IMG/VR virus record: IMGVR_UViG_3300019487_000026
Location: 1-64,000 of that record
From: a virus
Length of the DNA: 64,000 nt
Direction: 5' to 3' (one strand)
Of this stretch, positions 1-50,770 are shown piece by piece. A model generated the notes under the pieces. The model saw nothing but the letters and a program-made list of their open reading frames with translations. It did no database searches and was not told the DNA's origin. The stretch's first letter is position 1. Every line of letters begins with the position of its first letter. The translations under genes were made by a program, and so were the position numbers.

Positions 1-735
1 ATCAAAGAGTTAGTAGGTCAAACACCCTACTTGTATTGCACTGATGGTCAGGGTAATGTGTATGTTCGTCAGGCATTGATGGTATGGTCAAAAGGCATAC
101 GAGCAACTGTTAAGGTTGTATTTGATAACGACGATTATATTGAGTGCACACCTGACCACGAATTTTTATTAAGCGATGGGTCGTATAAAAAAGCAAAAGA
201 TTTAGTCGCAAGTGATAGTCTTGCTGCTTTAAACAAGCGCTTAATCAATGATTATCTGTCTTTAAGTATTACAGGTAGTCGCAAACTTATTGCAGAACAT
301 AATGCCGTTTTTGAAATGAAATTTGGTCAATATCCAACAATTTTAACAAGCAAGCGCAACACTGACAGCACTGTTGCCCATCACGTAGATCACGTCAAGT
401 GGAACAACCATCCCGATAATATTCAAACAATGACACTTCGGGAACACTCCACTCATCATTCAACGGATTTGAAAGAAATGCAACAGCTTCGGGCGCGGCG
501 GATGAAAGGAACCACTTGGGAAGAGTTTTACGGGGAAAAAAAGGCGCGAGAAATACGAACAAAATATGTGGCAAAGCGTAAGGGAACAACACCGTGGAAC
601 AAAGGAATTAACTTTTCAAAACAAACAACAAACCACAAAGTGGTGCGTGTAGAGGAAAGTATTGAGCAAGAAGTTTTTGATATAGCAATGCCTGAATATC
701 ATAACTTCGTGGCCAATGGTGTCTTTGTTCACAAC
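1..735 (+). other. Intein 1 of NrdJ (C-terminal part, HNH-type)
   Basis: Protein-splicing element whose N-terminal block lies before the window. The visible part has a block-B like segment (VFDNDDYIECTPDHEFLL), an HNH-like core (HHVDHVKWNNHPDN) and a clean C-terminal block ending in VFVHN before extein Cys (codon 736). The endonuclease is HNH-type, unlike the LAGLIDADG inteins 2 and 3 of the same gene, so the three were acquired independently. Confidence 0.9.
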
Positions 736-3700
736 TGCTGGCATCCAGACATTCTCGAATTCATTGCAGCAAAACAACAACCAGGACGTCTCACAAAGTT
801 CAACGTGTCTGTCAATTGTACCGATGAATTTATGGAACGGATTGTTCGGATTCAGCAAATTGATCGTCAGATAATCGAGCACCAACAGAGTTTGGGCGAC
901 AGTCCCGTGTGTGGAACTGTTCTCCTCAATCTTACTGAAGCACGAGCAACATTGGATGAATGGAATCTGGTTTTTCCTGATACAACCTCTCCCGCTTACA
1001 AGAAAGAATGGCAAGGTGATATTCGAGCATGGAAAGCAAAAGGCTATCCTGTCAAACTTCATAATGTGGTATCAGCAACAGGGCTGTGGGATCTCTTGAT
1101 GGAGAGTACTTATAAACGCGCAGAGCCGGGCATATTGTTTCTTGATCGTGCAAATCATTTCTTGCCGCTCAACTATGCCGAAACGGTCTATGCCACTAAC
1201 CCGTCAATGCCAGCAGGAACGTTAGTTCACACGAAAGGCGGCATCTTTCCGATCGAAGTACTCGACGGGCAAGAATTTTTAGTGAAGTCGTTAGATGGTG
1301 AGTGGGCCCCAGCACGATGCAGACTTTCGGGGGAAAATGAAGAACTGTTAGAAATCTCATTTGGAACAAATCGCACAGTTCGGTCAACAAAGAAACATCG
1401 ATGGCCTGTTTACGATGCACGAATGGAGAGGTTATATAAAGTCGATGCAAGAGAGCTCCGAGTAGGTGATCTGATCCCATTAAATCGTAATGAGGATATT
1501 GGAGTCTTTGGTGATATGTCATTAACGTACGATGAGGGATTTTTTGTTGGTTATTTGACTGGCGACGGATGGTTCACACACAAAGGCAACAATGAATATA
1601 ATGTTGGTATTACTTTTGGAAAACACGAGCGTTCAATGGCAGAACGTGTCCTTGCAATTGTGAATTCACTAAAGAGTGTCCCATCCACTCTCTCCGTGAG
1701 GGAAAATACAGGGGAAATTTATTTGCAGTTTACGACAAGACAACTTGTTGATAAGATGTTGAGTCGCTATAAGTTAATACCTAGTGTAAAAACCATTCCA
1801 GATAGTGTTTGGCAGGGCAATGACCAATACATTAAAGGATTTGTTGATGGTTTATTGAGTGCCGACGGATGTGTAAGTGACAGCAACAACAATCTAAAAA
1901 TTACTCTTACCACATCAAGAGAAGAACTCGCACAAGGATTTGCAAAACTGTTGAGTTTTGCTGGTGTGCCAACAATGGTATGGAACACAATAGTCGAAGA
2001 AGTATCGTTTCCTAATGGTAAAGATTATGATCACTCATATGATCGTTGGGACGTGGCCGTGTCAGGCAAAGCAGTTCTTAAATTTGCAAAAGTGTTCGAT
2101 ATCACTCATCCTGATAAACACCAGAGACTCGAAAATATAATTAGTCGTGTATGCAACAAAAGGGATCATCGTGCTCTTGAATTTGTTGAGGTGGTGTCTG
2201 TTAAATCTGCCGGAACGGCCAAGGTTTGGGACATCAGTGTTCTACATAATCAACACGTCTTTCCAACTGAATGGTGCTACACGGGAAATTGTGGGGAACA
2301 AACTCTTGCCCCAGGCGGTGTCTGTAATCTTGGCTCTTTGAACTTGACACAGTTTATCAATGCAGATCGCTCTGGTTTTGATCTCGAGAAGGTTGCCAAG
2401 TACACTGCTATCATGGTTCGTTTTCTTGATGATATTAATGATCTGACAAAAGCTCCCTTGCCAGAATACGAATGGAACATTCGCAACAAACGGCGCGTTG
2501 GCGTTGGTATTCTTGGTTGGGGTTCGGCTTTGTATATGTTGAAAACAAAGTTCGGTTCGGAAGAGGCAGGTATCTTTCGCGATCAAGTGATGACAACAAT
2601 TGCACGTGCTGCCTATATGGCTTCAATTGATCTTGCAGTTGAGAAGGGAATGTTCTTTGTGTGCCGTCCCGAAAAACACCTCGAGGGTCCGTTTGTCAAA
2701 CAATTAAATCTTCCCTCAGAATATCTAGACAAAATGATGAAGTATGGAATTCGTAATAGTTCATTGTTGTCGATTCAACCAACAGGAAATACATCGATCC
2801 TTGCAAATGTTGTATCGGGTGGTCTCGAACCGGTGTTCATGCATGAGTACATTCGAACGGTTATTGTTGGTCATATGCCAGCAGAATTTGCAGACCAAAC
2901 TCCTAAGTGGTATGAGGGCGAATGGCACGAGACGAAAATGTTCAAGTTTACTAAAGAAGGCGACGAAGAGATTCTGAAAGGCAAAGGACCTGATGGAACC
3001 GTATACAAGATTGACAAGAATCGTGGTCTAACTCGAGAGGTCTTGTGTCAAGATTACGGCGTCCGCTATATGAAACGAGCGGAAGAATGGGACGGGCGGT
3101 ATGGATGGACGTCAACTGCAATGGATTTGTCGGTGAACGATCATTTGAATGACTTAAAGGGCTTTGCTCCCTATGTTGATAGTGCAATGTCGAAATGTGT
3201 GGCAGAAGGGACACTAATTTCAACGAATAAAGGACTGAAACCGATTGAAGCACTGGGTATTCATAGTTCATCGCAAGAGGGGTTTGTTGTGCCCTGTGAT
3301 AATTTTACTGTTCTTGACGAAAACGGTGAGGAAAAGGATGTAACACAACATTATTTTGGTGGCATTAAGCCTTGTGCCACTGTCCGTTTTAATAATGGAT
3401 TTAAGTTAACAGCTGCCTACACACACAAACTAAGGTGTGCTACAGGATGGAAACCGCTTGCTGATATTAAGGTTGGAGATAAAGTGTTTTATCGCACAAA
3501 CGCTTTTGTCGTTGATAGACCTTACATATCCCCACCACAACCAACATTTGCTCCCAATGCTAAACACACGACTTTTCCACAAGTTGTTGACGAAGATTTT
3601 GCGTTACTGCTTGGGATGTGGGTGGCAGATGGAAGTTTAACTGATCATTCAGTTTCAATCTGTGAAAAAAATGAGAATGTAAACGCACTATGTAAGCGAC

Positions 3701-5109
3701 TGATGGTCCAATTGTTCAACACACACCATGTTCAACTTGACACAAGGTGGGGAGTAAAAACACACTATGTACATTCAAGTTCAATTGCCCGCTGGTTTAA
3801 GAGAGAGTTTGGTCATGGTGCTGCTAACAAACGCCTTCCTCAATGGTTGCTCGATTCGCCGGTCTCGGTGTGGAAGGCGTTTGTTGAAGGATTAACTCTT
3901 GACGGTTATCTGAAAAAGACTGAAGGCGCCACCTTGTTGGTGGTGTTTGATGGATATGCGAAAGATGTCGCAGAAAAACTAACATATATGTTATCCACGA
4001 TGGGCGTTCAGTATTATCTATTGACAAGAACTGCTGGAAACGAAAAAACAACATACGGTGTTATCGCTTGGTTAACAGATACTGATACAATTGTTCCTGT
4101 TGAAGACCACAAAAAAGCATACAATCCACAAGAAAAAGCAAAAAAACAAACCTATATTTCCAATAGTGTGTTTGAGCAATTAATTACTCAACAACCACAC
4201 AATACATCTGGCAGTATAATTAGAGCAAGATTACGAAAATGCCAACAGAGGGACAATTTTGTTAGAATGTCGTTTGTTGACAAGTTGGGCATAGAGTTTG
4301 ATCGAAATCTCACTTGTGTGGTGGTTACGGATATCGTTGATGTAGGAGAAAAACGTGTGTACGACATTGAGGTAAAAGACACGCACAGTTATCTGATAAA
4401 CGGCGTTGTCTCGCACAATACAATCAATGTTCCAAACGACTATCTATTCGAGGAGTTCAAGAACATTTATCTTGATGCATACAAGTCAGGATACGTGAAG
4501 GGCGTCACAACCTATCGTGCTGGGACAATGACAACTGTTCTTGCAGCCAAAGACGAGAAGAATGCAACAGACATGGATGAAGAGATTATTCTCGAGGACG
4601 TGAAACTGCCAGATAGTGCACCGGCAACGATGAAAACACTAAAGGCAGAAGGTCGGAAGTGGTATCTAACAGTTCTTTGGTGGGATGACCAAAAACTTCG
4701 ACCGTTTGGTTTCTTTGTTCACACAAATAGTCACGAGAAAACGACAATCGCAAATGATGCCGTTGAGTGTTTGACCGCCTTAGCAAAGCGAAAAGGTATT
4801 CCACCAAAACACATTGATAAAGTTCACGAGAAGATTGAGGTGGACAATAACATTACGAAGATTGCTCGTATGATTAGCTTGAATCTTCGACACGGTGTCC
4901 TGATCAAGAACATTGTGTCTGCTCTTGATGGTGTCGACAATGCAACGGTTGGAACATTCTTATTTGCAATCAAAAAGTACTTGTCGTCGTTCATCAAAGA
5001 TGGTGAACAAGTTGAGGGAAAAGTCTGTGAAGCATGTGGATCGACAAACATTCTTTATAGCGAAGGTTGTCATAAGTGTGGAGATTGTGGCTCGAGCAAG
5101 TGTGGTTGA
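1..5109 (+). CDS. nrdJ: Adenosylcobalamin-dependent (class II) ribonucleotide reductase with three inteins, 5' end missing
   Basis: Reduces ribonucleotides to deoxyribonucleotides for phage DNA synthesis. The frame is open from base 1, so the start lies upstream. Extein segments run 736-1203, 2290-3195 and 4420-5109, about 687 visible residues after removal of the inteins. Family marks are HPDI.EFI just after the first intein, the NP-CGEQ active-site segment interrupted by intein 2, a PTGNTSILANVVSGGLEPVF-type loop, the SK-TINVP segment interrupted by intein 3, and a cysteine-rich tail (CxxC.. CHKCGDCG) that fits the C-terminal redox and zinc region of class II enzymes. A terminator follows directly. 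The class II call rests on those motifs and the single large subunit. A class I NrdA would lack the cysteine-rich tail pattern. Confidence 0.93.
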   Translation: MKELVGQTPYLYCTDGQGNVYVRQALMVWSKGIRATVKVVFDNDDYIECTPDHEFLLSDGSYKKAKDLVASDSLAALNKRLINDYLSLSITGSRKLIAEHNAVFEMKFGQYPTILTSKRNTDSTVAHHVDHVKWNNHPDNIQTMTLREHSTHHSTDLKEMQQLRARRMKGTTWEEFYGEKKAREIRTKYVAKRKGTTPWNKGINFSKQTTNHKVVRVEESIEQEVFDIAMPEYHNFVANGVFVHNCWHPDILEFIAAKQQPGRLTKFNVSVNCTDEFMERIVRIQQIDRQIIEHQQSLGDSPVCGTVLLNLTEARATLDEWNLVFPDTTSPAYKKEWQGDIRAWKAKGYPVKLHNVVSATGLWDLLMESTYKRAEPGILFLDRANHFLPLNYAETVYATNPSMPAGTLVHTKGGIFPIEVLDGQEFLVKSLDGEWAPARCRLSGENEELLEISFGTNRTVRSTKKHRWPVYDARMERLYKVDARELRVGDLIPLNRNEDIGVFGDMSLTYDEGFFVGYLTGDGWFTHKGNNEYNVGITFGKHERSMAERVLAIVNSLKSVPSTLSVRENTGEIYLQFTTRQLVDKMLSRYKLIPSVKTIPDSVWQGNDQYIKGFVDGLLSADGCVSDSNNNLKITLTTSREELAQGFAKLLSFAGVPTMVWNTIVEEVSFPNGKDYDHSYDRWDVAVSGKAVLKFAKVFDITHPDKHQRLENIISRVCNKRDHRALEFVEVVSVKSAGTAKVWDISVLHNQHVFPTEWCYTGNCGEQTLAPGGVCNLGSLNLTQFINADRSGFDLEKVAKYTAIMVRFLDDINDLTKAPLPEYEWNIRNKRRVGVGILGWGSALYMLKTKFGSEEAGIFRDQVMTTIARAAYMASIDLAVEKGMFFVCRPEKHLEGPFVKQLNLPSEYLDKMMKYGIRNSSLLSIQPTGNTSILANVVSGGLEPVFMHEYIRTVIVGHMPAEFADQTPKWYEGEWHETKMFKFTKEGDEEILKGKGPDGTVYKIDKNRGLTREVLCQDYGVRYMKRAEEWDGRYGWTSTAMDLSVNDHLNDLKGFAPYVDSAMSKCVAEGTLISTNKGLKPIEALGIHSSSQEGFVVPCDNFTVLDENGEEKDVTQHYFGGIKPCATVRFNNGFKLTAAYTHKLRCATGWKPLADIKVGDKVFYRTNAFVVDRPYISPPQPTFAPNAKHTTFPQVVDEDFALLLGMWVADGSLTDHSVSICEKNENVNALCKRLMVQLFNTHHVQLDTRWGVKTHYVHSSSIARWFKREFGHGAANKRLPQWLLDSPVSVWKAFVEGLTLDGYLKKTEGATLLVVFDGYAKDVAEKLTYMLSTMGVQYYLLTRTAGNEKTTYGVIAWLTDTDTIVPVEDHKKAYNPQEKAKKQTYISNSVFEQLITQQPHNTSGSIIRARLRKCQQRDNFVRMSFVDKLGIEFDRNLTCVVVTDIVDVGEKRVYDIEVKDTHSYLINGVVSHNTINVPNDYLFEEFKNIYLDAYKSGYVKGVTTYRAGTMTTVLAAKDEKNATDMDEEIILEDVKLPDSAPATMKTLKAEGRKWYLTVLWWDDQKLRPFGFFVHTNSHEKTTIANDAVECLTALAKRKGIPPKHIDKVHEKIEVDNNITKIARMISLNLRHGVLIKNIVSALDGVDNATVGTFLFAIKKYLSSFIKDGEQVEGKVCEACGSTNILYSEGCHKCGDCGSSKCG
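1204..2289 (+). other. Intein 2 of NrdJ (LAGLIDADG), at the NP/CGEQ active site
   Basis: 362 residues starting with Ser and inserted between Asn-Pro and the Cys of the CGEQ active-site motif. It has two LAGLIDADG blocks (VGYLTGDGW and FVDGLLSADG). The end reads CYTGN followed by extein Cys, so the usual penultimate His is Gly. Such inteins are known but often splice with altered kinetics. Without splicing the reductase would lack its active-site loop. Confidence 0.9.
3196..4419 (+). other. Intein 3 of NrdJ (LAGLIDADG), at SK/TINVP
   Basis: 408 residues. Begins with Cys (CVAEGTLISTNKG) after extein SK and ends with GVVSHN before extein Thr of TINVP. LAGLIDADG blocks are LLLGMWVADG and FVEGLTLDG. 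All splice-junction residues look intact. It sits in a conserved substrate-site segment, as homing elements usually do. Confidence 0.92.
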
Positions 5110-7377: not shown

Positions 7378-9411
7378 CTAGTCATTAACAAATCCAAAGC
7401 TACCTTTAATTTGATTGTCGCTTGACTTCGGCTGGTTGTCAATTAGGGCACGAAGACGAGCAACGGCTGCCTCAAACTCAACCTCGAACACTTCGATTGA
7501 TACGATCAATTCTTTGATGTGTGCGATTGAGAAGTTTTTGGTTGCCTTGATCCATTTTTGAAGTTCTGCGTGATTTTCGGAAAGTCGTTTATTCTTTGCG
7601 GTGAGATAAACACGACGTGCTTCTTCATTAGGCATCCCAATTTTTCGAACGAGATCAAAACGACTGGGGCGACACACGAATCGTTGGTCGAGACGTTCCG
7701 GAAAATTCGTTGTAGCAACGAAAACCACGTTGTCAATTTGAAGTTCACCATCCATAAGCGCGAGCAAATCAGCTTCTCCGTGATCATCGATAATCGTGTC
7801 AATGTCTTCAAGCATCACAACCAGCGGGCGCGTTGGTTCAACTTGCCGGAGGATTTTCAAGCCTTTTGCGGACAGGTCAGGGTTGCTTACGTAGACAGAA
7901 ATTCCACCATTCTCAATTACTTCATTCGAAATCTGTTGAAGGGTTGATGTGTTGTGTGTAACTGTAAAATCACCAAGCAAGAAACGACCATTTCCATCTA
8001 AGGTGAACCCATAATAATCATCTTCGTCCAGTGGAATAACTTCTATAGAAGTGTGCAATGGATCTTTGATTTGTTTCCGTGGTTTTGCTTGTTTCCGTTT
8101 AATGCGCGTCGGTATTTGATCTGTGTGTCCTGAAATATGAACACTTTGACTGTAAAATACATCACCGGTTTGATTTGTTGTTTGTTTTTGACTCACAGAC
8201 ACTCGAAACCCAAGTGAGCGAACAAGGAATACAACATCATCAATCAATCTTTTGTTTGTATTAGAAAACTCAAAGCAGTTTGATCCAAGATACCCATCAC
8301 TATCGAGTAGTCCAGCTAATAACTGAAGACGAGTTTCTCTGCTATTTATTTTATAGAGTTGTGGTATGTGTTTGTTGTTGAGCACGCCGAGCTGTTTCAT
8401 TTGTGCGCGAAGTGGATTCGATCCTCTTTGGAAGGCTTTACCTGACAACGCATAGGTTTTTGCTTTGTTTGTGGGAGAGATCTTCTTCTCAACGAGCCGT
8501 AGTCCCACATTGGTGGCGTACGATTCCAGAAAACCTATAACTTCACCGTCAGCCGTAGTTATATCCGTGTTAGCGGACGTTCCGTCGCCCAACCACAGTC
8601 CAAGATAATAAGGATCAACACCTGTAGGTTTTGCTTGAAACTCTATGCTAACCTTATAGCCATACCATTCTTTTTGAAAGTTGGCCGTCGTAGCCAAATA
8701 ATCTTTGAGTTCAACATCTTTGTATTCGGTTGTGCGCCTGTGAGGATTATGTCTACCTTTCTTCCATGTTGATCGCACTAGAGATAGAATATGGGATTCA
8801 TTGACTGTGTAACTATCACCGTTTGTTTGGTCTATCCTGTACATCTTTTCACGGCCGCGGCCGAGCGCACACACTGTTCTGGGAGTAGAGTCATCACCCA
8901 TAACCAAATCACCAACTTTAATATCTTCTACTGCTTTAATTGAGCCATCATACATTATAACTGGAGTGCCTCGCTTTAATGATTTACCCGATCCAGGAGG
9001 GCCCCAAAGAAGAACTCCACGCTTCCATAGGAAGCCAAACTTACGAAAATGCTCTTCTTTTGTCCAGAAGGTTCGAATCTCACGAACAATTTCATCGCTG
9101 ACACTATCTGGGAGCCGGATTAGTTCATCGAGGTTTATGTCCGCTTTGTGGAAATGGATCCCGAGACTGTCATTGGCTTCGATCGTATACTGTCCTGGTA
9201 CTAATTCGTCAACAGCCGTTTCACAAGCCGAATAGCGGCGCCCACCATAGATCGCCCACATCTGTTGTAGTCCAGTTCCAGTCATTCGACTGTCGTCGCC
9301 ATCGTCTCCCCTCCGTGGGCGCGGAGGTGAAGTTCGACTTTCGCGGGCGCGACGAACTTGACCGGCAAGGCGAGCTAGCTCGGAAAGTTCTCGAGCAATA
9401 TGATCAGTCAT
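7378..9411 (-). CDS. AAA+ ATPase (BCS1/FtsH-like ATPase fold) interrupted by an intein
   Basis: ATG at 9411, overlapping the topoisomerase stop by eight bases (ATGACTGA). 677 codons before splicing, about 333 residues after. The spliced Walker A reads GPPGSGKTS, and Walker B is LVVMLEDID, followed by a sensor-like ATTNFPERLDQRF segment and an Arg-rich SRFDL. The N-terminus is low-complexity, rich in Arg, Ser and Pro. Its place next to topoisomerase suggests a role in replication or protein remodelling, but the substrate is unknown. Confidence 0.88.
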   Translation of the reverse strand: MTDHIARELSELARLAGQVRRARESRTSPPRPRRGDDGDDSRMTGTGLQQMWAIYGGRRYSACETAVDELVPGQYTIEANDSLGIHFHKADINLDELIRLPDSVSDEIVREIRTFWTKEEHFRKFGFLWKRGVLLWGPPGSGKSLKRGTPVIMYDGSIKAVEDIKVGDLVMGDDSTPRTVCALGRGREKMYRIDQTNGDSYTVNESHILSLVRSTWKKGRHNPHRRTTEYKDVELKDYLATTANFQKEWYGYKVSIEFQAKPTGVDPYYLGLWLGDGTSANTDITTADGEVIGFLESYATNVGLRLVEKKISPTNKAKTYALSGKAFQRGSNPLRAQMKQLGVLNNKHIPQLYKINSRETRLQLLAGLLDSDGYLGSNCFEFSNTNKRLIDDVVFLVRSLGFRVSVSQKQTTNQTGDVFYSQSVHISGHTDQIPTRIKRKQAKPRKQIKDPLHTSIEVIPLDEDDYYGFTLDGNGRFLLGDFTVTHNTSTLQQISNEVIENGGISVYVSNPDLSAKGLKILRQVEPTRPLVVMLEDIDTIIDDHGEADLLALMDGELQIDNVVFVATTNFPERLDQRFVCRPSRFDLVRKIGMPNEEARRVYLTAKNKRLSENHAELQKWIKATKNFSIAHIKELIVSIEVFEVEFEAAVARLRALIDNQPKSSDNQIKGSFGFVND
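7951..8982 (-). other. Intein in the P-loop of the AAA+ ATPase (LAGLIDADG)
   Basis: 344 residues beginning with Ser (SLKRGTPVIMYDG) and ending TVTHN before extein Thr. Inserted between Lys and Thr of Walker A (GSGK/TS), so the ATPase is inactive until splicing. LAGLIDADG blocks are YLGLWLGDG and LLAGLLDSDG. Confidence 0.92.
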
Positions 9412-10765
9412 TATATTGGCCTTTGGTGTATTTCTTGAGGATTTCTTCAAGTTCAGAGATGTAAACCTTACGGCGATTAGGTTCACTAGACAACAGGCTA
9501 TTGTATTCCTTCAGTTGGGTTTCCCCCTCTTTGATTCTGTCTTCATTTTTCAAACGTTCTTCCTCAGTAAAGCGATATACAGCAAGATCAGCAATATAGT
9601 CGAGGTTCACAATACCAATTTTAGTGAACCAATCCTTGAGTTCTGCACGAGACGACAAAGTTGCTGAGTGCGCGGACGCTCGATTTTTAATTGCTGTTCG
9701 GACATCGTAGTATTTACTAAGGTCTTGTTTGAGAAGATCTCGCAGTCGCTCATACCGCTGCACATACCACGCTAGTCGCCAGTCGGTAAACGCCTGAATG
9801 AACGACACTGGTTCAGCATTCAGAATTGATTGCCCATCAAAACTAACGACGTTGAAGTTCTCAATATGACGGATCGTCAGTCCAAGCTGTTGTAAGGTTT
9901 CTTCCTTCGTTTGTCCACTCAGAATACCCTTCTTGAAGCGAACAACAATGTTGAATTTATCCTTTGAATTGTCAACGACCCGAACAATAGTGTTGTCTTC
10001 AACAAGTGCATCTAGTTTCTCGATTAGCTTGGCATGTAGTAGACCGTATGGGAGCTTAGTAATACGAACAGAGACCCCATCGACGTCTTCATAGTCGCCA
10101 CTATAGTAGTAAGCGACACCCCGTTCTGTTGCTTCCGTCTTATGAGCAGCCGTTTCGAACGGTACAGGAGCCATAATTGGACGGAAGGTTGGCATTGGAT
10201 TCTTGAGTTTCTTTTCTCCTCGCAGATGTTCTAACTGAAGCTTGATAATATCATTAAGGGTGCGAGGAAGAATGTACGTCGCAAAGCCAATAGCAATGCC
10301 CTCGGTTGGATTGAGGAGCGCAATTGGAATTAGCGGGAGAAAATGAACGGGCTCCATCAACGTGCCGTCATAGTTCTCTTGCATTGGAATCACTTCGATG
10401 TCTCGAAACACGACATCGTCGGTAAATTTCGAAATCGCAACGGACGTGTATCGGCTTGCACCGTAGCCCTTTGGTTTCAGTAACGTACCAAACGCGCCAT
10501 ATGGCTTCAGAAGAGGAATATTATTCCCGTATCGTGCTGCTAGTGTGTCAACAGCGGTTTCGGGACTTGCGTGTGGATGGATTGGCATGGTTGCACCAGC
10601 CAAGACAGCTGATTTGAATTTATCGCCACTTCGTCCTGTCCATAAAACGCGCCGCTCAGCAGACTTTAAGCCGTCAGTAGCGGCAGGAATTGCTCGCATA
10701 CGCATAACGTATAACGAGTAGTCTCGGCGTTGCCTATCAATATAGGCAGAAGATTGTGGTTTCAT
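9404..10765 (-). CDS. 52: DNA topoisomerase II medium subunit (T4 gp52-like, GyrA/ParC family)
   Basis: 453 aa, close to T4 gp52 in length. N-terminal breakage-reunion domain: DGLKSAERRVLW is the conserved GyrA-type DGLKPV.RR segment, and the catalytic Tyr is likely the Y of GYGASRYTSV. It lacks the beta-propeller C-terminal domain of gyrase, as gp52 does. Pairs with the ATPase subunit at 11839-13767 to relax and decatenate phage DNA. Overlaps its upstream neighbour by four bases. Confidence 0.92.
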   Translation of the reverse strand: MKPQSSAYIDRQRRDYSLYVMRMRAIPAATDGLKSAERRVLWTGRSGDKFKSAVLAGATMPIHPHASPETAVDTLAARYGNNIPLLKPYGAFGTLLKPKGYGASRYTSVAISKFTDDVVFRDIEVIPMQENYDGTLMEPVHFLPLIPIALLNPTEGIAIGFATYILPRTLNDIIKLQLEHLRGEKKLKNPMPTFRPIMAPVPFETAAHKTEATERGVAYYYSGDYEDVDGVSVRITKLPYGLLHAKLIEKLDALVEDNTIVRVVDNSKDKFNIVVRFKKGILSGQTKEETLQQLGLTIRHIENFNVVSFDGQSILNAEPVSFIQAFTDWRLAWYVQRYERLRDLLKQDLSKYYDVRTAIKNRASAHSATLSSRAELKDWFTKIGIVNLDYIADLAVYRFTEEERLKNEDRIKEGETQLKEYNSLLSSEPNRRKVYISELEEILKKYTKGQYND

Positions 10766-15432: not shown

Positions 15433-16107
15433 TTATTTGGCTGGCTCGCTAACCTCGGGCTTTGTAACTTTTGAATGGCGAACCTTTTTCTTGTCCGACT
15501 TTCCGTTTGTCTGTGCAAGGTGTGCGATCATTCTGTCGAGGCGTTTCCGAATTTCGGGGGAGTGCATCCACAAGTCCTCACCACGAATGATTTTATTAAA
15601 CTCGTCTTCGGTCAGAAAGGGAATGTAGATCTTTTTTGCGAGCGCAGAGAACCATTTCGTTGTTGCGTCAAGCTGCGCGAACATTTCTTGGCCCTTACCA
15701 ACGACACCCGACTTGAAGTTATGGAACATTACCATACAGTGATCGTTAACAACCATCTCATCACCAGCAAGAAAGATAAACGTTCCAAGAGAGAATGCCA
15801 TGCTTTCAAGGACCGTCACGATTTTCGCTTGTGAGTTTTGCATCGCATTGACGATTTGGACGCCCGTGTCAAGCCGACCGCCTGGAGTGTTTAGGTGAAT
15901 GAAGATGATATCGTTAGATGCTGCGGTCAGCATTCGATGGATCATTTCAACATAGTCGTGTGGCTCACCAATTTCATCGCTCAAGTAGAAATGAACCTGA
16001 GAGGCACAGAACGTTTGCTCAAACGCCATGAACGGTCGTTTCTTTGGAGGTGGTTGTTTCTTGTCGTCTTCTTCTTCGTTCTTTAGACTATATTGATAGG
16101 AAAACAT
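15433..16107 (-). CDS. ClpP/SppA-type serine protease
   Basis: 224 aa with AAGGAG ribosome site. The ClpP fold is shown by IIFIHLNTPGG (oxyanion strand), the nucleophile segment ESMAFSLGTFI (candidate Ser in FSLG) and the His in MVMFHNF. The C-terminal tail is basic and lysine-rich (KSDKKKVRHSKVTK). Bacterial ClpP needs a Clp ATPase; phage relatives also serve as head-maturation proteases. No scaffold or capsid gene is nearby, so a general degradation role seems as likely. Confidence 0.8.
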   Translation of the reverse strand: MFSYQYSLKNEEEDDKKQPPPKKRPFMAFEQTFCASQVHFYLSDEIGEPHDYVEMIHRMLTAASNDIIFIHLNTPGGRLDTGVQIVNAMQNSQAKIVTVLESMAFSLGTFIFLAGDEMVVNDHCMVMFHNFKSGVVGKGQEMFAQLDATTKWFSALAKKIYIPFLTEDEFNKIIRGEDLWMHSPEIRKRLDRMIAHLAQTNGKSDKKKVRHSKVTKPEVSEPAK

Positions 16108-16152: not shown

Positions 16153-16527
16153 CTAAACAAACTGCGATTGGGTAATTCTTGGGCCGTCTGCGTATTCAGT
16201 TATCAAGTCTTCCTTGCGGCCAGGCATGCCTGATAATGCGGCCGCTTGGAGCTGATGTTGTTTGATTCGTAGATTTGTATGGTCGTATTCGGTTAAGACG
16301 AACAAAAAATCATCAACTTCTTTGTAATCGTTATAGATGTAGCGGGTACCAATCATGGTGAACATATCACGATGTTTACGAACAGCTTCTGGAAGTGACA
16401 GTCCTGTATGATCTTTGATCATTTGCTGCATTGCTTCGAGATGGTCATGCGCCCTACGCCGGTAGTAATCGGCACGTCGCTTGTCCATATCGATCTCTTC
16501 CTCAATCTGACGTTTGACCATGATCAT
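16153..16527 (-). CDS. Unknown protein, 124 aa
   Basis: Starts MIMVKRQIEEEIDMDKRRADYY, a charged helix, then mixed structure. The start follows ten bases after the tmRNA terminator and has no clear ribosome site, so it may be read from residual readthrough or start at 16521. No family recognised. Confidence 0.6.
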   Translation of the reverse strand: MIMVKRQIEEEIDMDKRRADYYRRRAHDHLEAMQQMIKDHTGLSLPEAVRKHRDMFTMIGTRYIYNDYKEVDDFLFVLTEYDHTNLRIKQHQLQAAALSGMPGRKEDLITEYADGPRITQSQFV

Positions 16528-16536
16528 CACTGTGCT

Positions 16537-16563
16537 AAAAGGAGAGGGCTTTCGCCCTCTCCT
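16537..16563 (-). terminator. Rho-independent terminator of the tmRNA transcript
   Basis: Ten-bp perfect stem AGGAGAGGGC / GCCCTCTCCT closed by a GAAA tetraloop and followed by TTTT on the minus strand. It ends the tmRNA gene. Confidence 0.9.
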
Positions 16564-16822
16564 GGTAAGTTGGATAACAAGGTTTACCAAACCCCGCTGT
16601 AAGGTTAGCAGCCGTTAGGCTGCAACTCCGTAGAGTTCCTCAACAGTGTACGCGTTTTCATCGTTTGCGTTTACGTTTTTGCGCCGATTACGTCAGTCGC
16701 CTGTCGCACTGTCCCCGTCGTCTACAACGTCAATCAATCCTATTTCGGGCCCGTTGATGGTGGACCCGGCCGGTACCGCCCCGGCGTCTTGTCCGCTTTC
16801 GGGACGCTTCACACAGTGATCA
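16564..16822 (-). ncRNA. ssrA: Two-piece (circularly permuted) tmRNA, alphaproteobacterial type
   Basis: On the minus strand the acceptor half comes first and ends in CGGGTCC-A-CCA (3' end at 16758), preceded by a T-arm GCCGG / CCGGC. After only five bases the coding half begins with GGGCCCG (16752-16746), which forms a seven-pair acceptor stem with CGGGTCC. The resume codon is GCA and the tag frame encodes ANDENAYTVEELYGVAA and a TAA stop. The stop sits in a GCAGCC / GGCTGC helix equivalent to P5. A sigma70-type promoter and a terminator flank the gene. tmRNA rescues stalled ribosomes and tags their products for proteolysis. The permuted order is known from alphaproteobacteria and some beta- and cyanobacteria. 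Exact ends of the mature pieces are estimates. Confidence 0.9.
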
Positions 16823-16824
16823 GG

Positions 16825-16855
16825 TATTTATACTACGAAAACTCTAAAAGGTCAA
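16825..16855 (-). promoter_or_regulatory. Sigma70-type promoter of the tmRNA
   Basis: TTGACC (16855-16850), 17-base spacer, TATAAA (16832-16827). The -10 also reads TATAAATA, so it could serve as a late promoter too. Confidence 0.75.
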
Positions 16856-17102: not shown

Positions 17103-17606
17103 TCATCCGCCTTTCTTTACACCTTTTGTGGTGGCCCAGTTTAAATCCAAGTCTTCGGCATATTCTTCGACGGCGTGAAGCGGTGTAGTAAACGCTGGCA
17201 GCTTTGTATAATCAATATCGCCAAGATCGTATGAAAAAGTGATATGGGGCTCGTACGTTGGAAAGTCGTATGTTGCTCCGTGTTCGGCCATCAGTTCTTT
17301 ATGTCGCTTTACGAGTTCGGGACAATCAAGCAGAAGAACCAATGCTTTTGTGGATGGACCTTCACCTCTAGTCTGAAATACTGTGAAGCCTTTCGGATGA
17401 CACGTCAAAGAGATTGGTCCAGCAGGCTTATAGTTCGGTAAATGTTTTCGACTATAAAGAAGTGTTGTATGTACTTTGTCAGGACGAATTGCATTCGGTA
17501 ATTTATTTTCACTGATATATTTGTGAATGGCTCGTTTGCTAGGTGTATCGTAGCGAATACCTGCGTACGTGCCGCGTGCTTGTTCAAAAAGATCTTCAAG
17601 TTTCAT
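17103..17606 (-). CDS. Acb1-like 2H phosphodiesterase (candidate anti-CBASS protein) with LFE leader
   Basis: 167 aa from the ATG at 17606. H46-T-T48 (KVHTTLLYS) and H121-I-T123 (YEPHITFSYD) are the paired catalytic motifs of 2H phosphodiesterases. Both flanks resemble T4 57B (Acb1), which cleaves the cyclic oligonucleotide messengers of CBASS defence. The family match is from memory and the anti-CBASS role is inferred. The leader MKLEDLFE-Q looks like a capsid-targeting sequence. If cut by the head protease, the enzyme could be packaged and injected. Overlaps the upstream stop. Confidence 0.75.
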   Translation of the reverse strand: MKLEDLFEQARGTYAGIRYDTPSKRAIHKYISENKLPNAIRPDKVHTTLLYSRKHLPNYKPAGPISLTCHPKGFTVFQTRGEGPSTKALVLLLDCPELVKRHKELMAEHGATYDFPTYEPHITFSYDLGDIDYTKLPAFTTPLHAVEEYAEDLDLNWATTKGVKKGG

Positions 17607-17781
17607 CGCTGTCAAGTGCCTGTTGTACTTGTTGTTTTCCGAGCCGCCGGTGGTGCTTGCTATGTTGCCGTTTCCACATACGACGATTCTCACGAGCCTC
17701 CCGCTCGATTTCGTAATTTGCTTCGTCCTCTGCCTCGAGCTTACGTTGCAAGTGTGCTTCATCTCTTGACGTTGGCTTCAT
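17596..17781 (-). CDS. Unknown small charged protein, 61 aa
   Basis: Almost entirely charged helix (many Glu, Arg, Gln, His), probably coiled coil. Start overlaps the RNA ligase stop by four bases and its own stop overlaps the Acb1-like start by 11, a tight operon arrangement. No family recognised. Confidence 0.65.
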   Translation of the reverse strand: MKPTSRDEAHLQRKLEAEDEANYEIEREARENRRMWKRQHSKHHRRLGKQQVQQALDSDET

Positions 17782-22644: not shown

Positions 22645-24387
22645 TCATACAGCAACATCCATTTGAATTGCTGGATGGCTCTCGTACTCCTCAACTATGA
22701 AGTCCTCATACTTGAAGTCGTCAATGTTTCCAATCTTGCGAGCAAATTTGAATGTGGGTGACAAAAACATGTTCCGTTTTACTTGTTCTTGTAGCTTTTC
22801 TTTGTGATTGATGTAGATGTGAACATCAGCACCATTCCAGATCAATTCGCCCGGTGCCATGTTGACAACTTCGGCAAACATTCGAAGGAGAAAACTATAC
22901 TGAACAATATTGAACGGCACACCAAGTCCAACATCACAAGAGCGTTGGTTGACCAGGACAGAAAGACCATATTTGGGAGCGTTGAGGTCTTCAAGCAACT
23001 CATGCGGGTCTTTTTGCACCTGGGTTGCTTCAAGGGCGTCGAGAACGCCATAGCGTTTTGTTACAGCCAAGAAACGTTCTTGATCTGTTAGAGGTCTCGT
23101 GTAGAATTGAAACGCGTAATGGCACGGAGGCAGTTTCATCTGTGGAAGATCAGCGACGTTCCAAGCTGAGATGATTAGGCGACGGTCGGTTGGATTGTGC
23201 TTCAGTTTGTCTACGACTTGGGCAATTTGGTCAGTAAAAAGTTGTTGACGAAACACGCACCCGGGCTTTGGTTCAACTTTTTCAAACACCCACTTTCGTG
23301 TTTGTTGTTTAGGTGAATGGAGTAGGGCTGTTGATATTGCTTGGCTGTGTTTAATCCCTTGTTGCCTCGCAAACCAACGCTGAACTGTGAATTCATATTT
23401 CTTCCCTGTTGGTTTGTGTGTAGCAATATATTTGCTTCCATCAAGCTTAGGAAGCACCTGATTGTATTTGGAGGGAAGAAAGACACACGTATTCTTAGAG
23501 TATGAAGACGCACCAAAATAATCTTTATCAAGATCGTATTGAGAAGGATGCGTTGTCCATTGTGTGAAGTAAACGAGATCGTGGATATCACGCAGAAAGT
23601 TTGCAAAGCATCGCCACTGCTGATCAACAAACACGCCTTGTCCACCATACAGGTAATATTCAGGAATAGATGTGTCGTAGCATCGACGCATCATATTATA
23701 CCAAAGATTATACGCAGTGTTATAATAAGATGGCCGTTCTTTATATTCACCTATACATCCCTGTCCAAACACTGTAATGTTATACGGGTCAGCAACCTGA
23801 CCACGTCGTAGGTTTGAACGAAATGCTTCGACAAGAGAAGTTGTATTTTCAAATTGAACAAGGTATCGACTGTTCTTATTACCTTGTTGGGAAATTTTGC
23901 GAATGACAGTGAACCAATCACCTCTATTGTTTTGAAGTTTTTGACCTGTAAGGCCGTCCTCGTCAGTTGGTTCAAGAAGTTCGTTCGTTGGAGCAGTGAA
24001 CGGAGCATCAACACCACCAGAACGTATTGAAATTTCAACGACATTATTCATCCAATCAACTGTCTCCCATTTACGCCATTGAAAACCATAAATTTTATTT
24101 AAGTGCCCTTCGGTCGCGGCCCATTCATCCCAGATCGACACCCCATTATCTTGCAGATACTTGATATTGCTGCTGCCAGACATCATCCACAGGAGCTCAT
24201 GGATGATTGATTTTGTATGGACCTTTTTCGTTGTCAAAATCGGAATCGTGTTATCGCTCAAATCAAAACGCATCTGATAACCAAACACACCAATCGTATC
24301 AATACCGGTTCGATTTGGCTTCTGGACTCCGTTGGATAGAACATGATTGACACATTCTATGTATTTGATGTCATGAAATGCGGTCAT
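22645..24387 (-). CDS. thyA: Thymidylate synthase ThyA with a ~275-residue in-frame endonuclease-like insert
   Basis: 580 aa against about 265-290 for usual ThyA. N-terminal part (to WRKWE, residue 108) and C-terminal part (from about residue 384, TDQIAQVVDKLK) align with ThyA, including RRLIISAWN, the catalytic Cys422 in LPPCHYAFQFY and the RSCDVGLGVPFNI motif. The insert lies between the YGFQWR and DQI segments. No intein splice blocks are visible. Methylates dUMP to dTMP using the folate cycle with DHFR. Overlaps the upstream gene by four bases. Confidence 0.88.
   Translation of the reverse strand: MTAFHDIKYIECVNHVLSNGVQKPNRTGIDTIGVFGYQMRFDLSDNTIPILTTKKVHTKSIIHELLWMMSGSSNIKYLQDNGVSIWDEWAATEGHLNKIYGFQWRKWETVDWMNNVVEISIRSGGVDAPFTAPTNELLEPTDEDGLTGQKLQNNRGDWFTVIRKISQQGNKNSRYLVQFENTTSLVEAFRSNLRRGQVADPYNITVFGQGCIGEYKERPSYYNTAYNLWYNMMRRCYDTSIPEYYLYGGQGVFVDQQWRCFANFLRDIHDLVYFTQWTTHPSQYDLDKDYFGASSYSKNTCVFLPSKYNQVLPKLDGSKYIATHKPTGKKYEFTVQRWFARQQGIKHSQAISTALLHSPKQQTRKWVFEKVEPKPGCVFRQQLFTDQIAQVVDKLKHNPTDRRLIISAWNVADLPQMKLPPCHYAFQFYTRPLTDQERFLAVTKRYGVLDALEATQVQKDPHELLEDLNAPKYGLSVLVNQRSCDVGLGVPFNIVQYSFLLRMFAEVVNMAPGELIWNGADVHIYINHKEKLQEQVKRNMFLSPTFKFARKIGNIDDFKYEDFIVEEYESHPAIQMDVAV
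23239..24063 (-). other. Insert in ThyA resembling a homing endonuclease with NUMOD-type DNA-binding module
   Basis: Approximate limits, ThyA residues 109-383. It contains YNLWYNMMRRCYDTSIPEYYLYGG and NTCVFLPSKYNQ, as seen in free-standing phage endonucleases, and a C-terminal TGKKYEFTVQRWFARQQGI...IS segment like NUMOD modules. It is in frame with both ThyA halves. It lacks an initial Cys/Ser block A and a terminal HN, so either it stays in the mature enzyme as a loop or the region is a self-splicing intron whose reading frame happens to be open. Confidence 0.65.
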
Positions 24388-24572
24388 TCTTCACCTGTGC
24401 TTGGTTGGACAATGAAAAGTACTCGCTCGGGAACCCACTTATGCCACAGTCCGTCCTTGTCGTTTTGAGGAGTGATCTCTACTAACATTTCCTCTTTCTT
24501 TGACTCTAAAGTCCGCTTTGCGGTGCGACCCGTCTTTCGCACTTCGACGTTTTCGTACACATAGGTAGTCAT
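24384..24572 (-). CDS. Unknown small protein, 62 aa
   Basis: Basic N-terminal half (VRKTGRTAKRTLESKKEE), beta-rich end. Four-base overlaps on both sides with Thg1 and ThyA genes support its reality. No family recognised. Confidence 0.65.
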   Translation of the reverse strand: MTTYVYENVEVRKTGRTAKRTLESKKEEMLVEITPQNDKDGLWHKWVPERVLFIVQPSTGEE

Positions 24573-25447
24573 ATGACTTTAATTCCCTGTGCTGCATAGC
24601 CAATTGTTGCTTCTTCAAGCACATCATTTTCGGGTGCTTGAAGATGTTTTTCGATGAACGTTCTGTCCTGTGTAAAGATCGGAATGTTGTCATCAGCCAT
24701 AGCACGTGAACCGGACGAAAACATATTCCATTTAGGATCATTGTATACACACGATCCTCGTTTTTTCCATACATCAATATCATTCCAGTTGATGCCCTTT
24801 TGCAACATCAGCATGTCCTGGACTTCACTATTGTTTTTCCCATGCATCTCTTTCTGAGAGAAGAAAAAACGACCCAGCATTTGGACGCTGTTGCGTGATG
24901 CGTCTTGTTGTCGCCAGATGAAGTAATTTACGACTTCCTCTTTGGGGACGTTGTACACACGAGCATCAAACTGAGCATAGTCGCCCCAGTAGTCGAAGCT
25001 GACGATAGCTCTGTTCTGAAATTTTGAATTAAAAGCAACAGTAGCAATACTTGCAGAGATTGAAACAATTTTCTGCACATTTCCACCGAACCACTGTTGT
25101 GTTTCGTGCTTATCCCAATCACGCAACAGTAGAGAGATTTCATCGGATTGTGTGTAAGCAAGCACACAATTCTGAATGTTGTTGAGAAGGACGGCTGCTG
25201 TGTCAACCATCGAGTTGTGCATGATTTCGCTGAACGGACTTTGTTGTAGGCTGGTATCAACAACAAAACGGTCGGCAATCCCCATCAAAGCAGCAGTCTT
25301 TTCCTCATAGGGAACTAAACGCTTGGTAAACGTGTGGAATGCCCGTCCGTCAATACGGATGATCACAGGCGTTCGACGCAAAAGTGCGCCTTGGGTTGTG
25401 GCTTCGTACTCTTTCATACGATCGCCGAGAGTGGTTTTGTCTGTCAT
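24569..25447 (-). CDS. tRNA-His guanylyltransferase-like 3'-5' polymerase (Thg1/TLP)
   Basis: 292 aa. IIRIDGRAFHTFTK and AYTQSDEISLLL carry the metal-binding Asp residues of the Thg1 family, and the intervening HNSMVDTAAVLL region matches too. Family members add nucleotides to tRNA 5' ends, either G-1 of tRNA-His or general 5' repair (TLPs). The window also has a tRNA-His and an RNA ligase, so tRNA repair is a fair guess. AAGGAGGT ribosome site; first gene of the long minus-strand operon. Confidence 0.9.
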   Translation of the reverse strand: MTDKTTLGDRMKEYEATTQGALLRRTPVIIRIDGRAFHTFTKRLVPYEEKTAALMGIADRFVVDTSLQQSPFSEIMHNSMVDTAAVLLNNIQNCVLAYTQSDEISLLLRDWDKHETQQWFGGNVQKIVSISASIATVAFNSKFQNRAIVSFDYWGDYAQFDARVYNVPKEEVVNYFIWRQQDASRNSVQMLGRFFFSQKEMHGKNNSEVQDMLMLQKGINWNDIDVWKKRGSCVYNDPKWNMFSSGSRAMADDNIPIFTQDRTFIEKHLQAPENDVLEEATIGYAAQGIKVI

Positions 25448-27823: not shown

Positions 27824-27925
27824 TGGAGCGGATACCGAGAGTCGAACTCGGGACTGGACCTTATTATAAGCACTTTGTCAAATGCTCATAGGCAAGGTTC
27901 CGTTTTACCACTAAACTATATCCGC
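27824..27925 (-). tRNA. tRNA-Gly(GCC) with a 28-nt hairpin insert in the anticodon loop
   Basis: Acceptor stem GCGGATA / TATCCGC is perfect, followed by T and encoded CCA. D-stem GTTT/AAAC; T-arm CCGAG-TTCGACT-CTCGG. The anticodon arm reads GAACC-TTGCC, then 28 extra bases (27863-27890), then AA-GGTCC. Without the insert it is a 74-nt tRNA-Gly(GCC) with one mismatch in the anticodon stem. The insert lies between positions 36 and 37 and can itself fold as ATGAGCA / TGCTTAT. An ordinary tRNA-Gly(GCC) is present at 63780. Confidence 0.75.
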
Positions 27926-45499: not shown

Positions 45500-45573
45500 G
45501 CGCGATTAGCTCAATGGGAGAGCAATTGTCTCTAAAACTTTGGTTGAGGGTTCGAGTCCCTCATCGCGCACCA
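45500..45573 (+). tRNA. tRNA with apparent CTA (amber) anticodon
   Basis: Perfect GCGCGAT/ATCGCGC acceptor stem, A, encoded CCA; D-arm GCTC/GAGC; T-arm GAGGG-TTCGAGT-CCCTC. The anticodon loop by standard counting is CTCTAAA, giving CTA, which reads UAG. The anticodon stem has two U-U mismatches, so identity is uncertain. Confidence 0.6.
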
Positions 45574-49837: not shown

Positions 49838-50770
49838 ATGAGTAAAATGCGTCTCCTAAAGGACATCTACGAAATGGCACGAACAGCACAAGTATGCGCG
49901 AACTGTGGTCGTGAGCTTGGTGTAGGAAAGAACCATTTCTACTACAAAGATAAAACCACAGGTACAGCCAAATACAAGTGCAAGGGAACAGGTACTTTCT
50001 TCTCAGCTGCAGCTCCTGGAACTGCTCCAAGCACTCCTGGTGCTTCGACTGCTCTTCCAACAGCACCAGCCGCGACACCAGCACCGACAACTCCACGAGT
50101 TCCAACACCAGCAAAAGCACCCAGGGCGCCGATTCCGGGGGGTTCGGGCACCGATCGAATCAAGCAGTGGCTCGACGAGCACAAGATTACTGGATATACG
50201 ATTCGAAGTGATGGTCTAGTTGATGTTTCGGGCCATGTGATTCTCAATGGATACGGAGAGTCGACGCTTCCGGTCAAATTTGGAAAGATCACTGGTGAAT
50301 TCCATGCTGGTGCAACTGCTCTGACAACAATGGATGGCATGCCTTCACACACAACCGGCGACTGCATGCTTGACACATCGAAATTCACATCATGCCACGG
50401 TCTACCAGCCAATATGGAATGTGAAGGATCGTTTGCTTTGTTTGGCAACAAACAGATGACGAGCTTGGATGGGATGAACATCAAAACAGTTGGAAAGATT
50501 CTTTATCTTTCAAAGCTACCTCTGATCAAAGACCTGAAAGATATTCACGAGCGTGTTCATCATGTTGGGGAAACGATCGTCCTCGCAAAGACGCCAATCG
50601 AATCACACGTCTTGGGACTTATGTTGATTCCTGGTCTGAAGAACGTTGAGGGACTAGAACCAAAAGGCGTACTGGACATTTTAAACAAATACCTAGCTGG
50701 AGATCGAGATCTTTATATGTGTCAAGATGAGCTGATCGACGCCGGGTTTCTACCGTTTGCGAAGCTCTAA
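49838..50770 (+). CDS. Zinc-ribbon protein with Pro/Ala linker and repeat (LRR-like) domain
   Basis: 310 aa. N-terminal MRLLKDIYEMART leader-like helix, a zinc ribbon (CANCGRE ... KYKCKGTG), a 60-residue Pro/Ala/Thr linker and a repeat domain with short solenoid-like units (LPVKFGKITGEFHAGATALTTMDGMP, GLPANMECEGSFALFGNKQMTSLDGMN). Stop overlaps the MoxR start, so the two probably act together. Confidence 0.7.
   Translation: MSKMRLLKDIYEMARTAQVCANCGRELGVGKNHFYYKDKTTGTAKYKCKGTGTFFSAAAPGTAPSTPGASTALPTAPAATPAPTTPRVPTPAKAPRAPIPGGSGTDRIKQWLDEHKITGYTIRSDGLVDVSGHVILNGYGESTLPVKFGKITGEFHAGATALTTMDGMPSHTTGDCMLDTSKFTSCHGLPANMECEGSFALFGNKQMTSLDGMNIKTVGKILYLSKLPLIKDLKDIHERVHHVGETIVLAKTPIESHVLGLMLIPGLKNVEGLEPKGVLDILNKYLAGDRDLYMCQDELIDAGFLPFAKL

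What the first reader, a model, noticed from the sequence alone, without database searches (positions are those of the whole stretch)
16564..16822. Phage-encoded two-piece tmRNA with its own tag
The minus strand shows a circularly permuted ssrA: acceptor half ending CGGGTCC-A-CCA, five spacer bases, coding half starting GGGCCCG, seven-pair acceptor stem, and a GCA-resume tag ANDENAYTVEELYGVAA before TAA in a P5 helix. Phage tmRNAs are known, but a permuted one with only a 5-nt spacer is unusual. It points to an alphaproteobacterial (or related) source and may add a phage-specific degradation tag.
Basis: partly seen in the sequence, partly recalled or inferred. Interest (0 to 1): 0.85.

Follow-up and report, generated by a model that had tools for sequence, protein, structure and literature searches.

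The report
Phage-encoded split tmRNA beside a ClpP protease
A large virus of bacteria carries its own two-piece version of tmRNA, the RNA that frees stuck ribosomes and marks the unfinished protein for destruction; such phage genes are already known, but here the gene sits at a fixed place next to a phage-encoded ClpP protease in a whole group of related large phages.

Summary
The minus strand at 16615-16818 matches Rfam tmRNA_permuted with 120.5 bits, E 5.8e-23. The record is an 89-kb IMG/VR phage contig related to phages of 237-350 kb. Two claims do not hold. Two-piece tmRNAs in phages are published (phage Melnitz; 53 of 133 phage tmRNA structures in that survey). A 5-nt spacer is common: 114 bacterial contigs have spacers of 2-14 nt, 21 of them 5 nt or less. 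What is new here is context. In 8 of 9 distinct related phages a permuted tmRNA lies upstream of a ClpP-like protease with an intact Ser-His-Asp triad, within a conserved gene block (RNA ligase, Acb1, tmRNA, ClpP, primase, topoisomerase). Tags differ between members, while acceptor, T and P2 helices keep pairing through compensatory changes and G3-U70 never changes. So it is a functional core gene of this phage clade, most likely doing ordinary trans-translation with host SmpB. A dedicated link to the phage ClpP is plausible but not shown. A new member of a known kind, moderately interesting.

The parts
16825..16855 (-). promoter-like element: TTGACC (16855-16850), 17 nt, TATAAATA (16832-16825), the T4-type late promoter motif
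   Evidence: sequence; TATAAATA 6 times in the window against 1.19 expected; same motif just upstream of the tmRNA in L034, L178, L195, L179; function not shown
16758..16818 (-). acceptor piece: P2 5' strand CACTGT 16818-16813, T arm 16785-16769, acceptor 3' strand CGGGTCC 16768-16762, discriminator A, CCA 16760-16758
   Evidence: RF04321 alignment; covariation in the clade
16753..16757 (-). 5-nt intervening sequence TCAAC
   Evidence: sequence
16563..16752 (-). coding piece: acceptor 5' strand GGGCCCG 16752-16746 with G3-U70 wobble, P2 3' strand ACAGTG 16712-16707, tag and a pseudoknot-like end (GGT/ACC 16593-16591/16583-16581; GGTAA/TTACC 16588-16584/16568-16564)
   Evidence: RF04321 and RF01849; P2 covariation; 3' pseudoknot by inspection only
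16615..16668 (-). tag reading frame, GCA resume codon to TAA: ANDENAYTVEELYGVAA
16608..16623 (-). P5 hairpin GCAGCC-TAAC-GGCTGC with the tag stop codon in its loop
   Evidence: sequence, folds at -11.5 kcal/mol
16537..16562 (-). intrinsic-terminator-like hairpin GGAGAGGGC-GAAA-GCCCTCTCC then TTTT
   Evidence: sequence, folds at -21.2 kcal/mol; not listed by the terminator scan, which asks for at least 5 T
15433..16107 (-). ClpP-like serine protease, next but one gene downstream; triad S106, H129, D178
   Evidence: phrog_1827 1.3e-57, PF00574 1.6e-13, PDB ClpP chains 1.6e-8 by profile, triad invariant in 9 relatives
16153..16521 (-). small gene of unknown function between tmRNA and ClpP, also present in L033 and L034
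   Evidence: no family match, homologues
17103..17762 (-). Acb1 (anti-CBASS) homologue, conserved upstream neighbour
   Evidence: PF23474 2.2e-35; synteny

Best explanation
A functional, phage-encoded two-piece tmRNA that is a core gene of a clade of large phages. One transcript starts at a late-type promoter near 16823 and ends at the terminator near 16537. Host RNase P and 3' processing enzymes cut out the 5-nt spacer, giving an acceptor RNA and a coding RNA held together by the acceptor stem and P2. Host AlaRS charges it through G3-U70, host SmpB delivers it to stalled ribosomes, and translation resumes at GCA to add (A)ANDENAYTVEELYGVAA, whose VAA end should send the product to a Clp protease. 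This keeps ribosomes in circulation when mRNA is cleaved or damaged during infection. Shown: anatomy, conservation, compensatory changes, fixed genomic place. Inferred: transcription, processing, charging, tagging, degradation.
For: Rfam hit far above cut-off. Same position upstream of ClpP in L034, L178, L179, L180, L181 (with L182 and L183), L035, L185, i.e. 8 of 9 distinct phages counting the window's own species. Also in L195, whose contig ends soon after the tmRNA. T and acceptor helices: 99% of cells paired, 7 of 12 pairs changed on both sides, covariation 0.607 against 0.179 shuffled, G3-U70 in 8 of 8. P2: 100% paired, 4 of 6 pairs changed on both sides (strands chosen by hand, so biased upward). 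Tags stay open and most end in AA although their length and sequence vary. Late-type motif in front of the gene.
Against: No SmpB in any of the five phage records searched, so it must borrow the host's. The host is unknown. No expression data. Co-folding the two pieces did not exceed shuffles by itself (interaction -11.8 against -7.4 +/- 3.6, 27 of 200 as good), so the structure rests on the covariance model and covariation, not on energy. L185 and L180 tags end in LAL and MVA, which may be poor degradation signals.
Confidence: 0.87

Rival explanations
1. A dedicated rescue-and-degrade pair: the phage tmRNA tags nascent chains and the phage ClpP, plugged onto a host ClpX or ClpA, destroys them, so that the phage controls both the tag and the protease. 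(This adds to, rather than replaces, the best explanation.)
For: tmRNA and ClpP stay neighbours in 8 of 9 distinct phages whose ClpP identity falls to 57%; catalytic triad intact; both preceded by a TAAATA-type motif in the window; the window tag ends in VAA.
Against: The neighbours on both sides (Acb1, RNA ligase, primase, topoisomerase) are conserved too, so adjacency may only reflect shared descent. L033 keeps ClpP without a tmRNA in the DNA held. No ClpX/ClpA-type partner in the phage records. Many phages have ClpP-like proteins, some as head proteases, without a permuted tmRNA.
Confidence: 0.2
2. The tRNA-like part of the window's tmRNA was swapped by recombination with an alphaproteobacterial-type tmRNA (host or other phage), while the mRNA-like part and tag stayed phage-specific. 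(A statement on origin, compatible with the best explanation.)
For: Against its relative L034 the window is 71-75% identical in the tRNA-like segments and 81% in the mRNA-like segment; against alpha-type phage L006 it is 87-92% and 59%. T-loop GGCGGTA and CGAAATAGGAT appear together only in the window among clade members.
Against: Only 55 tRNA-like positions, and L006 was the best of 103 compared, so the contrast is weak; alpha-type may be ancestral.
Confidence: 0.4
3. A remnant of a host ssrA gene carried off after integration or transduction, without function.
For: ssrA is a common integration site and fragments in prophages are reported (PMC9004378).
Against: Complete gene with own promoter-like and terminator-like ends, compensatory changes, fixed place in a conserved block of several diverged large phages.
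Confidence: 0.02
4. A decoy or inhibitor that competes with the host tmRNA rather than a working tagger, as reported for the tag-less tmRNA-like RNA of mycobacteriophage DS6A.
For: Precedent of a phage tmRNA form inhibiting the endogenous tmRNA (PMC11915505).
Against: Full tag frame with resume codon and stop in all members.
Confidence: 0.07

Closest known systems
Permuted (two-piece) tmRNA, Rfam RF04321 / RF01849 alpha_tmRNA / RF01850 beta_tmRNA
   Same: Gene order, acceptor stem with G3-U70, CCA, T arm, P2, resume codon, tag, stop in P5; score far above cut-off
   Different: Long 17-codon tag; alpha-type tRNA-like part with a mRNA-like part shared with beta-scoring phage relatives
Two-piece tmRNA of marine phage Melnitz and pelagimyophages (PMC9004378)
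   Same: Phage-encoded permuted ssrA in tailed phages, here also behind a T4-type promoter motif
   Different: Different neighbours (ClpP, Acb1, RNA ligase); no Rfam glutamine riboswitch match in the window
tmRNA and SmpB in huge phages (PMC7162821)
   Same: Huge phages carrying tmRNA, tRNAs and translation genes
   Different: No SmpB here; that paper used ARAGORN, which misses this gene, and its main text does not mention ClpP
Permuted tmRNA in Caulobacter phage CcrBL9
   Same: Giant phage with the same RNA ligase family and a permuted tmRNA at 149054-149359
   Different: Long spacer, among tRNA genes and not listed in the record

Membership tests
Permuted tmRNA (RF04321) | Covariance-model score above the gathering cut-off | tested here: met
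   120.5 bits against 47
Permuted tmRNA (RF04321) | Circularly permuted order: acceptor piece, spacer, coding piece | tested here: met
   coordinates in parts; spacer 5 nt
Permuted tmRNA (RF04321) | Seven-pair acceptor stem with G3-U70 alanine identity pair and CCA | tested here: met
   U-G at that pair in 8 of 8 clade members
Permuted tmRNA (RF04321) | P2 pairing between the two pieces | tested here: met
   CACTGT/ACAGTG, covarying in 9 phages
Permuted tmRNA (RF04321) | Resume codon, in-frame tag and stop | tested here: met
Permuted tmRNA (RF04321) | Pseudoknots in the coding piece | tested here: inconclusive
   3' pseudoknot visible by inspection; not counted across the clade
Permuted tmRNA (RF04321) | Processing into two RNAs, alanylation, tagging with SmpB | not testable with these tools
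   needs RNA and protein from infected cells; phage SmpB absent
ClpP protease (PF00574) | Family score above cut-off | tested here: met
   51.4 bits against 20.2
ClpP protease (PF00574) | Ser-His-Asp catalytic triad | tested here: met
   S106, H129, D178 invariant in 9 relatives; assignment to the E. coli triad by motif, from own knowledge
ClpP protease (PF00574) | Works with a AAA+ unfoldase of ClpX/ClpA type | tested here: inconclusive
   PF10431 absent from five phage records, most of them fragments; a host partner remains possible

The most novel reading that the evidence does not exclude
A clade of large phages carries a dedicated ribosome-rescue and proteolysis module, in which a phage tmRNA writes phage-specific tags that are read by a phage ClpP working on a captured host unfoldase, for instance to survive mRNA-cutting defences next to the anti-CBASS gene Acb1.
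Probability: 0.15. Interest if true: 0.65.

Novelty: new member of a known kind. Interest (0 to 1): 0.38.

Why it matters
It shows that a permuted tmRNA can be a stable core gene of large phages rather than a stray host fragment, and it puts the gene beside a protease that could act on its tags, which makes a testable case for phages controlling both steps of trans-translation. It also shows that ARAGORN-based surveys can miss phage tmRNAs.

Tried and rejected
Short spacer as a distinguishing trait: rejected, common in Alphaproteobacteria. DNA similarity to named phages: no match for the tmRNA region. SmpB and ClpX/A-type partner in the phage: none. Energy-based proof of pairing of the two pieces: not significant. 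Adjacency as proof of a functional tmRNA-ClpP link: weakened, because the flanking genes are syntenic too. AlphaFold model of ClpP: low confidence, mean pLDDT 52.8, so the fold-search hits to ClpP only agree with the sequence result and add little. Literature for a tmRNA-ClpP phage module: nothing relevant found in the library held.

Full report
The window is part of an 89,343-base IMG/VR virus record. Its genes are those of a large tailed phage: two-subunit topoisomerase II, primase, NAD-dependent DNA ligase, RNA ligase, PhoH, MazG, thymidylate synthase, ribonucleotide reductase and 15 tRNAs called by ARAGORN. The closest named relatives of single proteins are phages of 143-490 kb, mostly from Alpha- and Gammaproteobacteria, at 34-56% identity. 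Uncultured relatives are 237, 244 and 350 kb long, so the record is probably a fragment of a larger genome. The host is unknown.

The finding is correct as an observation. Rfam finds tmRNA_permuted at 16615-16818(-), 120.5 bits, E 5.8e-23, and alpha_tmRNA at 74.4 bits. A TTGACC-17-TATAAATA element ends at 16825, just before the acceptor piece, and a strong hairpin with a short T run follows at 16562-16537. TATAAATA is the T4-type late promoter motif; it occurs 6 times in the window against 1.19 expected, and no shuffle of 100 reached 6. The same motif precedes the tmRNA in L034, L178, L179 and L195.

The short spacer is not unusual. A pattern scan of one genome per species found 114 contigs with spacers of 2-14 nt, nearly all labelled as Alphaproteobacteria or a subgroup of them; 21 have 5 nt or less and 8 exactly 5, and every one of those 21 keeps a seven-pair acceptor stem. 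Phage contigs with 2, 8 and 9 nt also exist. Among the window's own relatives the spacer varies from 5 to 102 nt, so it is a freely changing segment. Phage two-piece tmRNAs are published: phage Melnitz, and 53 of 133 phage tmRNA structures in that survey (PMC9004378).

The more informative result is the setting. Two genes downstream is a ClpP-like protease (phrog_1827 1.3e-57; PF00574). A profile of it found 12 loci in viral contigs. Counting duplicates once, these are 9 distinct phages; 8 have a permuted tmRNA upstream of ClpP on the same strand. The exception, L033, has ClpP and the small upstream gene but no tmRNA in the 500 bases held upstream or in its 32.7-kb contig. A tenth phage, L195, has the tmRNA after RNA ligase and Acb1 homologues, but the contig ends before ClpP could be seen. 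The order RNA ligase - Acb1 - tmRNA - ClpP - primase - SprT - topoisomerase is kept in most members. The tmRNA is thus a core gene of this group. Adjacency to ClpP alone does not prove a shared function, since the whole block is conserved.

Selection on the RNA is visible. In eight clade members the T and acceptor helices have 99% of cells paired, 7 of 12 pairs with changes on both sides, and a covariation score of 0.607 against 0.179 for shuffles and at most 0.161 for slid versions; the G3-U70 pair is invariant. P2, chosen by hand, pairs in all nine phages checked, with 4 of 6 pairs changed on both sides among seven distinct forms. Tags: window ANDENAYTVEELYGVAA, L034 ANDSAYNVEELYGVAA, L178 ANDMAYDVEALYGVAA, L179 ANDAFYNEEFRLAA, L181 ANDAFYGEMRLAA, L035 ANEGNFRLAA, L180 ANDENYNVAMVA, L185 ANVNMQFALAL. 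Six of eight end in AA.

A hint of mosaic origin: the tRNA-like segments of the window resemble alpha-type tmRNAs (87-92% to phage L006) more than its clade (71-75% to L034), and the mRNA-like segment the reverse (59% and 81%). With 55 tRNA-like positions and L006 picked as the best of 103, this is a suggestion only.

Mechanism: ordinary trans-translation with host SmpB, RNase P and AlaRS is the best reading, since the phage records hold no SmpB. The tag's VAA end fits Clp degradation (own knowledge of ssrA tags). The phage ClpP has an intact triad but no phage unfoldase of ClpX/ClpA type was found, so any joint action would need a host unfoldase. I give the dedicated module 0.2 as a rival and 0.15 in its strongest form.

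Limits: no RNA or protein data; most viral records are fragments; the ClpP structure model was poor; the literature library is open-access only.

Noticed in passing
27827-27925 (-): tRNA-Gly(GCC)-like gene (Rfam tRNA 49 bits, missed by ARAGORN) with a hairpin insert of about 28 nt (TATGAGCATTTGACAAAGTGCTTATAAT) right after the anticodon; without it the loop would read TTGCCAA. Folds at z -4.25. A pattern scan found it elsewhere only in the same phage species. Intron-like, in a phage with an RNA ligase.
   Followed up: partly
45500-45573 (+): tRNA with CUA anticodon (ARAGORN calls it Pyl), a possible amber suppressor, with two mismatches in the anticodon stem.
   Followed up: no
17103-17762 (-): Acb1 anti-CBASS homologue (PF23474, 2.2e-35), conserved next to the tmRNA in the clade.
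   Followed up: partly
24569-25447 (-): Thg1-type tRNA-His guanylyltransferase (phrog_4717 9.3e-86; PF04446) in a tRNA-rich phage that also carries tRNA-His.
   Followed up: no
31-5109, 7378-9486, 22645-24387, 50770-54480: Several long genes (ribonucleotide reductase, an AAA protein, thymidylate synthase, a helicase-like protein) carry intein or homing-endonuclease domains or other inserted domains.
   Followed up: no
L177 (MH588546.1 149054-149359): Caulobacter phage CcrBL9 has a permuted tmRNA (73.3 bits) that its record does not list.
   Followed up: no
L185 and L180 tmRNA tags: Tags end in LAL and MVA instead of AA, which may change or abolish Clp recognition.
   Followed up: no
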